Source of the DNA: Nocardioides sp. Root140
GTDB taxonomy: Bacteria > Actinomycetota > Actinomycetes > Propionibacteriales > Nocardioidaceae
Reading direction: 5' to 3'
Length of the DNA stretch: 64,000 bases
Assembly: GCF_001426745.1 (NCBI RefSeq)
Contig: NZ_LMFI01000001.1
Coordinates: 1,190,022 to 1,254,021, forward strand
Positions 20,818 through 24,138 of the stretch are shown here, one piece after another (the stretch's first letter is position 1; the number at the start of each line of letters is the position of its first letter). A program made the position numbers and the translations under genes. The notes under the pieces are model-generated. The model saw only the letters and a program-made list of their open reading frames with translations, made no database searches and was not told where the DNA came from.

Positions 20818-20823
20818 TAGTGT
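20818..20823 (+). promoter_or_regulatory. -10 element, phosphomutase-like gene (leaderless type)
   Basis: TAGTGT, seven bases before the ATG at 20831; divergent from the corA promoter within about 30 bases. Confidence 0.45.
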
Positions 20824-20830
20824 CCGGGGC

Positions 20831-21532
20831 ATGGCAACGGTGATCCTGGTCCGGCACGGCAGAAGCTCGGCGAACACAAGTGGTGTGCTGGCCGGGCGCT
20901 CCGGTGGCGTCCGCCTGGACGACACCGGTACGGCCCAGGCCGACCGGGCGGCCACCCGGCTCGCCGCAGTGCCCCTGGCCGCGGTCATCAGCAGCCCGTT
21001 GGAGCGGTGCCGACAGACGGCGCGTCGGATCGCGGCAGCCCAACCCGGGGGACCGGACGTGCGCACCGAGCGGGGCATCGTCGAGTGCGACTACGGCGAC
21101 TGGACCGGCCGCCAGATCAAGGACCTGGCCAAGGAGAAGCTGTGGTCCACGGTGCAGCAGCAGCCCTCGGCCGCGGCCTTCCCCAACGGCGAGTCGCTCA
21201 CCGCGATGATGGCACGCTCCGTGGCCGCCGTACGACGCCTCGACGCCGAGATCACCGCCGAGCACGGGGAGAACGCCGTGTGGGTGGCGGTCAGCCACGG
21301 GGACATCATCAAGTCGGTGCTGGCCGACGCCCTGGGCATGCACCTCGACCTCTTCCAGCGACTGCACGTCGACCCGGCGTCGCTGTCGATCGTGCGCTAC
21401 ACCTCGACCCGCCCGTTCGTGCTGGGCACCAACACGCACGACGGCGACCTCGGCTGGCTGGCACCCGCCAGGAAGAAGCGTTCCCGCCGCAGGACCGATG
21501 CGGTCGTCGGCGGCGGCGCCGGACCGGAATAG
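20831..21532 (+). CDS. MSMEG_4193-type histidine phosphatase / probable phosphomutase
   Basis: A 233-residue histidine phosphatase superfamily protein. The catalytic RHG motif is at the N terminus (VILVRHGRSSAN, phospho-acceptor His), a second arginine lies in SSPLERCRQTA, the acid/base Glu region is IVECDYGDW, and the second catalytic His is in VAVSHGDIIKS. I place it in the MSMEG_4193 family, the first member of an actinobacteria-wide trio with DUF3090 and a PI-kinase-like protein. The trio is intact here and runs into mshC. The C-terminal Arg/Lys-rich tail is probably disordered. Its substrate is unknown. Confidence 0.88.
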   Translation: MATVILVRHGRSSANTSGVLAGRSGGVRLDDTGTAQADRAATRLAAVPLAAVISSPLERCRQTARRIAAAQPGGPDVRTERGIVECDYGDWTGRQIKDLAKEKLWSTVQQQPSAAAFPNGESLTAMMARSVAAVRRLDAEITAEHGENAVWVAVSHGDIIKSVLADALGMHLDLFQRLHVDPASLSIVRYTSTRPFVLGTNTHDGDLGWLAPARKKRSRRRTDAVVGGGAGPE

Positions 21533-21535
21533 GGT
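21530..21535 (+). promoter_or_regulatory. -10 element, DUF3090 gene, overlapping the upstream stop codon
   Basis: TAGGGT, seven bases before the ATG at 21543. Its first three bases are the TAG stop of the phosphomutase gene, so an internal promoter may begin exactly where the upstream frame ends. Confidence 0.45.
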
Positions 21536-21542
21536 TGGCGCC

Positions 21543-22121
21543 ATGGCTCCCGTGATCCACGAATTCGACCCGCCCGACCGGTTCGTCGCCGGCACCGTCG
21601 GTGAGCCGGGTGACCGCACGTTCTTCCTCCAGGCCCGGCGCGGGGCCAAGCTCGTCAGCGTGTCGCTGGAGAAGCAGCAGGTGGCGGTGCTCGCAGACCG
21701 TATCGACGACCTGCTCGACGAGCTGATGGCCAACGCCACGACGCAGAACGTCATCCCGGCGGTCGCGCCGCTCGACCTCGACGACTCCGCGCCGCTCGAC
21801 CAGCCCATCGAGGAGGAGTTCCGGGCCGGCACCATGACGCTCTCGTGGGAGAGCGACGTCGAACGCATCGTGATCGAGGTGTTCCCGTTCAACGAGGCGG
21901 CCGTGGTCAGCCCCGAGCAGGTCGACGAGGACTTCACCGAGCCGGAGCCCGAAGAGGTCTTCCTCGTGCGCATCACGGCCGGAGCCGCCCGGGCGTTCGT
22001 CAAGCGCGCCGCCCAGGTGATCGAGGCCGGCCGGCCGGACTGCCCGTTCTGCGGTGGCCCGATCGACCCCGACGGCCACCTGTGCGTGAGGGCCAACGGG
22101 TTCCGCAGAAGGAATCCGTGA
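21543..22121 (+). CDS. DUF3090 family protein
   Basis: A 192-residue protein, DUF3090 family, second member of the trio. The N-terminal part reads FDPPDRFVAGTVGEPGDRTFFLQA, the family hallmark. A basic segment GAARAFVKRAAQVIEAGRPDCPFCGGPIDPDGHLC near the C terminus contains CPFC and a later Cys plus His, which may form a zinc knuckle. It overlaps the next gene by four bases (GTGA), so it is translationally coupled to the SCO1664-type protein. The biochemical function is unknown; coupling suggests that the two proteins work together. Confidence 0.88.
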   Translation: MAPVIHEFDPPDRFVAGTVGEPGDRTFFLQARRGAKLVSVSLEKQQVAVLADRIDDLLDELMANATTQNVIPAVAPLDLDDSAPLDQPIEEEFRAGTMTLSWESDVERIVIEVFPFNEAAVVSPEQVDEDFTEPEPEEVFLVRITAGAARAFVKRAAQVIEAGRPDCPFCGGPIDPDGHLCVRANGFRRRNP

Positions 22122-22888
22122 GCGAGCCGGTCCCGCCGGCGGCGATCTCCACCGGCGACCTGGAGCTGTTGGGCCGGGTGATGCCTGCCTCCAACGCCAC
22201 CTTCATCGGCATCGTCGACGGCACCCAGGTGGTCTACAAGCCGGTCGCCGGCGAGCGGCCCCTGTGGGACTTCCCGGACGGCACCTTGGCGCAACGCGAG
22301 GTAGCCGCGTACGCCGTCTCGCAGGCCCTCGACTGGAACGTCGTCCCGACGACCGTGCTCCGCGACGGCCCGCACGGACCCGGCATGGTGCAGGCCTGGG
22401 CCGAGCCCGACCCCGACCAGGCACCCGTCGACGTGGTGCCCGAGGGAGAGCTGCCGGAGGGGTACCTCCACGTGTTCGACGCCGTCGGTCCCGAGGACGA
22501 ACCGGTCGCCCTGGTCCATGAGGACTCCCCGGCCCTGCGCCGGATGGCCGTCTTCGACGTGCTGGTCAACAACGGCGACCGCAAGGGCGGTCACGTGCTC
22601 GCGATGACCGACGGCCACCGCTACGGCGTCGACCACGGAGTCTCCTTCCACGTCGAGAACAAGCTGCGCAGCGTGCTCTGGGGCTGGCTCGGCACGCCGC
22701 TCACCGACGACGAGTCAGACGCCGTACGCCGGGTGGCCGCCGACGACGACCTGCACAAGCGGCTGGGCGACCTGGTCACCCCGCGTGAGCTGGCCGCGTT
22801 CGTCGCGCGGTGCCACACACTGCTGGAGACGGGCGTGATGCCGGAGCCGTCGGGGGAGTGGCCGGCCATCCCGTGGCCCGCGTTCTAG
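22118..22888 (+). CDS. SCO1664 family protein, PI-kinase/HipA-like fold
   Basis: A 256-residue protein with a GTG start inside the DUF3090 stop, preceded by GAAGGAA. It belongs to the SCO1664 family, for which a distant relationship to phosphatidylinositol 3/4-kinases has been proposed. Kinase-like features are a lysine in VVYKPVAGERPLWDFPDG (nucleotide site), the catalytic-type loop FDVLVNNGDRKGGHVL (D and N pattern), and the metal-binding-type DHGVSFH. It is the third member of the conserved trio; mshC begins 23 bases later but has its own -10 hexamer. Confidence 0.87.
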   Translation: MSEPVPPAAISTGDLELLGRVMPASNATFIGIVDGTQVVYKPVAGERPLWDFPDGTLAQREVAAYAVSQALDWNVVPTTVLRDGPHGPGMVQAWAEPDPDQAPVDVVPEGELPEGYLHVFDAVGPEDEPVALVHEDSPALRRMAVFDVLVNNGDRKGGHVLAMTDGHRYGVDHGVSFHVENKLRSVLWGWLGTPLTDDESDAVRRVAADDDLHKRLGDLVTPRELAAFVARCHTLLETGVMPEPSGEWPAIPWPAF

Positions 22889-22899
22889 AGGTCGTTGGT

Positions 22900-22905
22900 T
22901 AGGCT
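22900..22905 (+). promoter_or_regulatory. -10 element, mshC (leaderless type)
   Basis: TAGGCT, six bases before the ATG at 22912, in the short gap after the SCO1664-type gene. Confidence 0.5.
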
Positions 22906-22911
22906 GCCGCC

Positions 22912-24138
22912 ATGCAGACGTGGTCAGCCCCGCAGGTTCCTTCCCTCCCCGTTCGGGGCCCGCAGGTCTCGATCCATGACACGAGTTCCGGTGGCCCGGT
23001 CGCCACCACTCCGGCCGACGTCGCGCGTCTCTACGTCTGCGGCATCACGCCGTACGACGCCACGCACATGGGCCACGCCGCGACGTACGTCGCCTTCGAC
23101 CTGCTCAACCGGGCGTGGCGGGCGGCCGGCCACGACGTGCACTACGTGCAGAACGTCACCGACGTCGACGACCCGCTGCTCGAGCGGGCCACCAAGGTCG
23201 GCGTCGCCTGGGAAGAGCTCGCCCTGCGCGAGACCCAGTTGTTCCGTGACGACATGGAAGCACTGCGGGTGCTCCCGCCCCGCGACTACATCGGTGCCGT
23301 GGAGTCGATCCCGTTGGTGATCGACCTGGTCGAGAAGCTGCGCGCCACCGGCTCGGTCTACACCGTCGACACCGACCTCTACTTCTCCGTGACCGCCGAC
23401 CCGGCGTTCGGCGACGTCTCGGGTTGGGACCGCGACCAGATGCTGGCGATCTTCGGCGAACGTGGCGGCGACCCCGAGCGCGAAGGCAAGAAGGACCCCC
23501 TCGACTGCGTCGTGTGGCGCGGCGAGCGCGACGGCGAACCCGCCTGGGACAGCCCGTTCGGCCCCGGCCGCCCCGGCTGGCACATCGAGTGCGCCGCGAT
23601 CGCCCTCAAGCACCTCGGCACCGGCTTCGATGTCCAGGGCGGCGGCAGCGACCTGATCTTCCCGCACCACGAGATGTCGGCGGGCGAGGTGCAGGTCGCC
23701 GAACGCGGCGACGCGTTCGCCAAGGCCTACGCCCACGCCGGCATGGTGGCCTACGACGGCGAGAAGATGTCGAAGTCCAAGGGCAACCTCGTCTTCGTGT
23801 CCGCGTTGCGGATGAGCGAGGTCGACCCGATGGCGATCCGGCTGACCCTGCTCCGCCAGCACTACCGCTCCGACTGGGAGTGGACCGACGAGCAGCTCTG
23901 GAGCTCGGTCGACACCCTGGCGTCGTGGCGCGACACGATCACTGCCGGCGCCGGAGCTCCCGCGCAGCCGGTCGTCGAGGCCGTGCTCGCGGCGCTGGCG
24001 AACGACCTCGACGCCCCCACGGCCCTGGCCGCGGTCGACACGTGGTTCACAACCACTGCAGCCGGTGACACGACCGACCCGAACGCCGCCGAGACGATCC
24101 GCGCCCTCCTCGACGCCTCCCTCGGCCTCGCGCTCTGA
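22912..24138 (+). CDS. mshC: Mycothiol biosynthesis cysteine ligase
   Basis: A 408-residue class I tRNA-synthetase-like enzyme. It ligates L-cysteine to 1-D-myo-inosityl 2-amino-2-deoxy-alpha-D-glucopyranoside using ATP, the penultimate step of mycothiol synthesis. The HIGH-type motif is THMGHAATY (about residues 50-58), preceded by the zinc-ligating cysteine in LYVCGITPYD; GWHIECAAIALKHLG gives further zinc ligands and KMSKSKGN lies at about residue 285. It lacks the C-terminal anticodon-binding extension of CysRS, which separates it from cysS. It is the only mycothiol gene in the window and ends six bases from the convergent PAC2 gene. Confidence 0.96.
   Translation: MQTWSAPQVPSLPVRGPQVSIHDTSSGGPVATTPADVARLYVCGITPYDATHMGHAATYVAFDLLNRAWRAAGHDVHYVQNVTDVDDPLLERATKVGVAWEELALRETQLFRDDMEALRVLPPRDYIGAVESIPLVIDLVEKLRATGSVYTVDTDLYFSVTADPAFGDVSGWDRDQMLAIFGERGGDPEREGKKDPLDCVVWRGERDGEPAWDSPFGPGRPGWHIECAAIALKHLGTGFDVQGGGSDLIFPHHEMSAGEVQVAERGDAFAKAYAHAGMVAYDGEKMSKSKGNLVFVSALRMSEVDPMAIRLTLLRQHYRSDWEWTDEQLWSSVDTLASWRDTITAGAGAPAQPVVEAVLAALANDLDAPTALAAVDTWFTTTAAGDTTDPNAAETIRALLDASLGLAL

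What the first reader, a model, noticed from the sequence alone, without database searches (positions are those of the whole stretch)
20818..24138. Intact phosphomutase / DUF3090 / SCO1664 trio running into mshC
The order histidine phosphatase, DUF3090 and PI-kinase-like SCO1664 protein is complete and partly translationally coupled (GTGA overlap at 22118), and mshC follows 23 bases after. The trio is conserved in actinobacteria but its chemistry is undescribed as far as I know. Because mycothiol synthesis includes a dephosphorylation of a GlcNAc-inositol phosphate (the MshA2 step, long without an assigned gene), the phosphatase or kinase here may act on inositol-linked intermediates. That last step is inference.
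Basis: partly seen in the sequence, partly recalled or inferred. Interest (0 to 1): 0.7.

Follow-up and report, generated by a model that had tools for sequence, protein, structure and literature searches.

The report
Actinobacterial inositol kinase-phosphatase trio
This stretch carries three neighbouring genes, a phosphatase, a small protein of unknown function with a likely zinc-binding motif, and a likely kinase whose predicted shape best matches enzymes that phosphorylate inositol lipids; together they would likely add and remove phosphate on inositol compounds, and they also occur in many genomes where the later genes for the antioxidant mycothiol, one of which lies beside them here, were not found.

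The parts
20831..21532 (+). histidine phosphatase, MSMEG_4193 family (TIGR03848), catalytic residues kept
   Evidence: invariant R8, H9, R59, E85, H156 in 22 aligned relatives
21543..22121 (+). DUF3090 protein (TIGR03847/PF11290), predicted PUR-like fold plus C-terminal CxxC...HxC motif
   Evidence: invariant C167, C170, H179, C181; model and fold comparison
22118..22888 (+). SCO1664 family protein (TIGR03843), predicted kinase with type II PI 4-kinase-like fold
   Evidence: model and fold comparison; invariant K41, E61, D154, H159, D172
22118..22121 (+). GTGA stop/start overlap of DUF3090 and SCO1664 genes
22912..24138 (+). mshC, cysteine:GlcN-Ins ligase of mycothiol synthesis
   Evidence: 604.5 bits, cut-off 485.1

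Best explanation
The three genes encode a phosphatase-family protein, a DUF3090 protein and a SCO1664-family protein whose predicted fold is closest to type II phosphatidylinositol 4-kinases; they likely form a phosphorylation cycle on inositol head groups, in which SCO1664 would put phosphate on, the phosphatase would take it off, and DUF3090 would act as the kinase's partner. Shown: gene content, order, conserved catalytic residues, distribution, and the one genome found that lost the kinase alone. Predicted: both folds and zinc binding. Inferred: substrate (free inositol/inositol 3-phosphate or phosphatidylinositol/PI-phosphate), direction of each step, the DUF3090-kinase contact. Both known users of inositol phosphate, PI-phosphate synthase and MshA, usually accompany the trio, so the cycle would set the inositol-phosphate pool that they share; mshC would then be a neighbour in the same metabolic area rather than the partner.
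Against: Kinases of the same fold class also phosphorylate proteins or sugars (Fam20, CtkA, HipA rows; their substrates recalled), so lipid or inositol specificity is not shown. The window's SCO1664 protein is below Pfam's PI3/PI4-kinase gathering score (18.1 against 27.1 bits). 40 of 86 trio-less genomes have a PI-phosphate synthase-like hit of >=80 bits. Phylogeny alone could give the MshA and PI-phosphate synthase associations. G228 shows that the kinase is dispensable for keeping both pathways' genes. The assayed HP relative is weak with Km near 10 mM, and no inositol compound is in the substrate table ('inositol' does not occur in the text). DUF3090's PUR-like fold says nothing of inositol. 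In the class sample only SCO1664 of the trio was searched, so loss of HP and DUF3090 in f79 is not shown. The G228 argument rests on one event.
Confidence: 0.35

Rival explanations
1. A protein phospho-switch: SCO1664 would be a HipA/Fam20-like protein kinase, the histidine phosphatase its eraser, and DUF3090 the substrate or adaptor; no metabolite is involved.
For: Fam20, CtkA and HipA are the next folds; DUF3090 residues E43 and R164 change where the kinase is lost, as expected of a dedicated kinase partner; a writer-eraser pair in one unit.
Against: PI4KII rows score well above the protein kinases (18.5 against 14.7 and 13.8); the phosphatase stays intact in G228 without the kinase, so it would need another substrate there; co-occurrence with MshA and PI-phosphate synthase is left unexplained.
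Confidence: 0.3
2. The phosphatase is MshA2, removing phosphate from GlcNAc-inositol phosphate in mycothiol synthesis; the other two genes regulate it.
For: mshC next door in this class; trio tracks MshA (66 of 73 against 3 of 86) and MshB (61 of 73 against 4 of 86); all 27 genomes with MshA, MshC and MshD at the scores used have the trio; the pathway lacks this phosphatase (PMC2834668, passages).
Against: The published pathway has no kinase step (recalled; five steps in PMC2628429, passages); 36 of 73 trio genomes lack MshC and MshD at the scores used; G039 has weaker hits to all four msh genes and no DUF3090 or SCO1664; outside the class the MshC-like gene lies near PI-phosphate synthase (9 of 17) or an MshB-like gene (5 of 17) and was not seen near the trio (coordinates); impC is the published candidate (PMC2834668).
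Confidence: 0.12
3. A nucleic-acid function: DUF3090 binds single-stranded RNA or DNA through its PUR-like fold, and kinase and phosphatase act on nucleotides, RNA ends or tRNA.
Against: No Foldseek hit at E<=0.001; all 22 aligned DUF3090 proteins are acidic, pI 4.2-4.9; no neighbour beyond the trio is shared widely, though an O6-methylguanine methyltransferase gene lies nearby in some.
Confidence: 0.1

Closest known systems
Actinobacterial trio families TIGR03848 / TIGR03847 / TIGR03843 (M. tuberculosis Rv2135c, Rv2134c, Rv2133c; the last two assignments recalled)
   Same: All three proteins score above the family cut-offs, in the usual order.
   Different: No difference seen; the window is an ordinary member. 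Family function is unassigned.
Type II phosphatidylinositol 4-kinases (PI4KII-alpha/beta)
   Different: About 15-18% identity; an invariant His (H159) stands where PI4KII has Asn in the NTDRGNDN stretch; below the Pfam gathering score; substrate unknown.
Rv2135c acid phosphatase of M. tuberculosis (PMC3866925)
   Same: Same superfamily and catalytic residues; acid phosphatase, tetramer, weak on pNPP, PEP, fructose-6-P, glycerol-1-P. Same TIGR family is recalled, not tested here.
   Different: RHA motif there, RHG in the window; no inositol compound in its substrate table.
PUR-alpha repeat proteins
   Different: Acidic protein with an added CxxC...HxC tail; no Foldseek significance.

Membership tests
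TIGR03848/TIGR03847/TIGR03843 trio | each protein over its curated cut-off | tested here: met
   310.8/203.85, 242.6/117.25, 349.9/172.4 bits
TIGR03848/TIGR03847/TIGR03843 trio | adjacent, same strand, order HP-DUF3090-SCO1664 | tested here: met
Type II PI 4-kinase | catalytic fold | tested here: met
Type II PI 4-kinase | Pfam PI3_PI4_kinase gathering score | tested here: not met
   18.1 against 27.1 bits for the window protein; many relatives listed carry PF00454, many do not
Type II PI 4-kinase | phosphorylation of phosphatidylinositol | not testable with these tools
   no assay
MshA2 (GlcNAc-Ins-P phosphatase) | phosphatase family with catalytic residues | tested here: met
   family match and invariant residues; no model of the phosphatase was made
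MshA2 (GlcNAc-Ins-P phosphatase) | present wherever the mycothiol pathway is, and only there | tested here: inconclusive
   27 of 27 MshA+C+D genomes have the trio, but 36 of 73 trio genomes lack MshC and MshD at the scores used; G039 opposite case
MshA2 (GlcNAc-Ins-P phosphatase) | activity on GlcNAc-Ins-P | not testable with these tools
   not in the published substrate table either
PUR-alpha/Whirly fold | fold of DUF3090 | tested here: inconclusive
PUR-alpha/Whirly fold | single-strand nucleic acid binding | not testable with these tools
   acidic pI 4.2-4.9 in 22 rows speaks against but does not test it
HipA-like toxin kinase | fold | tested here: inconclusive

The most novel reading that the evidence does not exclude
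SCO1664 is the missing actinobacterial inositol kinase: it makes inositol 3-phosphate from taken-up inositol for both PI-phosphate synthase and MshA, the trio phosphatase runs the reverse step (and may be the unidentified PI-phosphate phosphatase), and DUF3090 is a zinc-binding PUR-fold governor of the kinase, a bacterial phosphoinositide-style switch.
Probability: 0.15. Interest if true: 0.8.

Novelty: new member of a known kind. Interest (0 to 1): 0.5.

Why it matters
Three steps of actinobacterial inositol chemistry have no gene in the passages read here: the PI-phosphate phosphatase (PMC6506517), the mycothiol MshA2 phosphatase (PMC2834668, impC only proposed), and whatever lets cells use fed inositol although PI synthase needs inositol phosphate (PMC3899939, with PMC6506517). 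A conserved kinase-phosphatase pair that follows the users of inositol phosphate is a concrete, cheap candidate for these, and the fold and the natural kinase-loss genome make the question testable. It also corrects the idea that the unit belongs to mycothiol alone.

Tried and rejected
Mycothiol-only function: lowered, because of the 36 of 73 trio genomes without MshC and MshD at the scores used and the class-limited mshC adjacency. Function by neighbours outside the class: clusters beside the trio (GDPD, DAGK, histidine kinases, F420-hydrogenase-like, FIST, O6-methylguanine methyltransferase, acetyl-CoA synthetase-like, ABC ATPase; etf-like and WhiB-like by reading the sequence only) are each limited to some families. 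The first gene caller was too poor and was replaced by homology between loci. W50 of SCO1664 changes in the DUF3090-less second copy of G008, but also in 1 of 139 others (L020), so I drop it as evidence. In G228, P173 of DUF3090 is changed too; it is invariant in the 22-row but not in the 112-row alignment. No convincing sequence match of DUF3090 in PDB (best E 0.17 and 0.44). Literature: DUF3090 occurs in 2 papers, both seen as passages, without function; searches for SCO1664/SCO1665/SCO1666/MSMEG_4193/TIGR03843/cg1607 (46 papers, 20 listed, all 20 by cg1607 only), Rv2133c-Rv2135c (7 papers; text of 3 seen in part), PI-phosphate phosphatase, PI kinases and inositol kinase showed no function for the trio beyond the Rv2135c acid phosphatase; most of these papers I saw as listings only. 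The searches cover open-licence PMC papers only. The listing did not show PMC4255298, which does discuss SCO1664 (found), so absence there is weak.

Limits: thresholds MshA>=369, MshC>=390 and PI-phosphate synthase>=80 bits were set by eye at gaps in the lists; outside the class MshC and PI-phosphate synthase hits are below curated cut-offs (one PI-phosphate synthase, G081, excepted), MshA hits partly so. Of the 36 trio genomes counted as lacking MshC and MshD, 10 have weak MshD hits (E<=1e-20, under the cut-off), 31 are at least 90% complete, and G058, G124 and G146 have intermediate MshC hits (318-345 bits). G123 (contig-edge MshC fragment) and G028 (fragmented draft) count as lacking MshC. 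Over-cut-off counts: DUF3090 66 and SCO1664 70 of 159. Of the 17 outside-class MshC-bearing trio genomes 6 have both on one contig, 107 kb or more apart; 11 have them on different contigs of drafts, so adjacency across contig ends (short contigs such as in G013) is not excluded. G182 and G293 lack SCO1664 and MshC but keep MshA and PI-phosphate synthase; both are drafts and an assembly gap was not excluded. G242 is 60% complete.
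Full report
What is there. The window holds, on the + strand, a histidine phosphatase (20831-21532), a DUF3090 protein (21543-22121), a SCO1664-family protein (22118-22888) and mshC (22912-24138); gaps are 10 bases, a 4-base GTGA overlap and 23 bases. All four score over their NCBIfam cut-offs. Left of it, on the other strand, lies a corA-like gene; right of it, tail to tail 6 bases on, a PAC2 protein. The source is likely a Nocardioides: the closest named DUF3090 in the scan is 92% identical, from N. 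jensenii. The same assembly has MshA, MshB, MshC, MshD and a PI-phosphate synthase over cut-off.

How conserved the unit is. In an even draw of 159 genomes of the phylum, DUF3090 and SCO1664 were each found in 73 at E<=1e-3, the same 73 (66 and 70 over cut-off). In 60 of 60 rows with all three genes (59 fetched primary loci and the window) they have one order and strand. Beyond the trio, neighbours are shared only by a minority of loci. G283 has SCO1664 and mshC on the opposite strand, convergent with HP-DUF3090.

Is it about mycothiol? In the window's class mshC follows SCO1664 within about 1.6 kb in 12 of 13 genomes of the phylum draw; in G008 it is on another contig. Outside the class 17 trio genomes have an MshC-like gene (391-446 bits, under the cut-off); in 6 it is on the trio's contig, 107 kb or more away, in 11 on another contig. 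9 of 17 lie within about 7 kb of PI-phosphate synthase and 5 others within about 7 kb of an MshB-like gene (coordinates). Table, trio genomes against trio-less: MshA 66 of 73 against 3 of 86; MshB 61 of 73 against 4 of 86; MshC 30 of 73 against 0 of 86; MshD 35 of 73 against 0 of 86; PI-phosphate synthase 72 of 73 against 40 of 86. 36 of 73 lack both MshC and MshD at these scores (26 of 73 if weak MshD hits count); 1 of 73 lacks all four msh genes; all 27 genomes with MshA, MshC and MshD have the trio. G039 has four weaker msh hits (316, 222, 369, 151 bits) and no DUF3090 or SCO1664. So the unit follows the early, inositol-phosphate-using part rather than the cysteine part. Shared descent could produce much of this; I did not correct for phylogeny. 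A review had called SCO1664 'invariably closely linked' to mshC (PMC4255298, passages); that does not hold outside the class.

Losses within the class (178 genomes). SCO1664 is missing in 10: six genomes of family f79, which also lack MshA, MshC and PI-phosphate synthase at the limits used; G182 and G293, which also lack MshC but keep MshA and PI-phosphate synthase; G242 (60% complete); and G228. In G228 phosphatase, DUF3090 and mshC lie together with the kinase gone. Its phosphatase keeps 21 of 21 invariant residues; its DUF3090 has D for E43 and L for R164. Both residues are invariant in the 112-row alignment and in 139 of 139 further sequences (these come from fetched loci, and some may repeat alignment proteins), and present in G184 of the same family, which has the kinase. 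One event only, but it points to DUF3090 serving the kinase. The reverse case, a second HP-SCO1664 pair without DUF3090 in G008, shows no clear mark.

What is published. Rv2135c: tetrameric acid phosphatase, 0.23 umol/min/mg on pNPP, Km about 10 mM, weak on PEP, fructose-6-P and glycerol-1-P, none on G6P, ADP or 3-PGA, membrane-fraction association (PMC3866925, abstract, Results section and passages). In BCG, Rv2134c is listed among mutants with altered rifampicin sensitivity (PMC11329110, one passage). PI-phosphate phosphatase unidentified (PMC6506517, passages). Missing mycothiol phosphatase, impC proposed; impA, suhB and cysQ mutants normal (PMC2834668, passages). C. glutamicum delta-ipsA lacks PI and mycothiol on glucose and has PI again on myo-inositol, while ino1 promoter activity is lower still (PMC3899939, passages). 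C. glutamicum carries the SCO1664 family (control).

Reading. A kinase of PI4KII-like fold, a phosphatase and a kinase-linked third protein, kept where inositol phosphate is used for PI and for MshA, are best explained as an inositol-headgroup phosphorylation cycle. Free inositol as kinase substrate would explain how inositol is salvaged and why the kinase can be lost without losing PI or mycothiol genes. Every substrate statement is inference.

Noticed in passing
L069 (G228:C16:58000-75248), 7611-10149: HP-DUF3090-mshC with SCO1664 lost; DUF3090 has changed two otherwise invariant residues (E43, R164).
   Followed up: yes
L068 (G008:C17:144000-163000), 8892-10266: A second HP-SCO1664 pair without DUF3090; W50 of the kinase, invariant in the alignments, is Ser here.
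   Followed up: partly
G031:C1:2006015-2011726 and 8 similar places (G069, G145, G156, G113, G134, G016, G080, G102): Outside the class an MshC-like gene sits within about 7 kb of PI-phosphate synthase, which looks like an inositol cluster separate from the trio.
   Followed up: partly
G039 (L070 7990-9123 for its MshC-like gene): Weak-scoring MshA, MshB, MshC and MshD set without DUF3090 or SCO1664.
   Followed up: partly
window 24145-25077 (-): PAC2-family protein tail to tail with mshC, 6 bases apart; by position and recalled annotation the counterpart of ParJ (SCO1662) of Streptomyces.
   Followed up: partly
L155 (G283:C2:54000-61000), 1167-4329: Trio split into convergent halves: HP-DUF3090 on one strand, mshC and SCO1664 on the other.
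   Followed up: no
L116 5416-7096 (Cryobacterium sp.): Trio followed not by mshC but by what reads as another histidine phosphatase and a pseudouridine synthase-like gene (read from the ORFs, no family scan).
   Followed up: no
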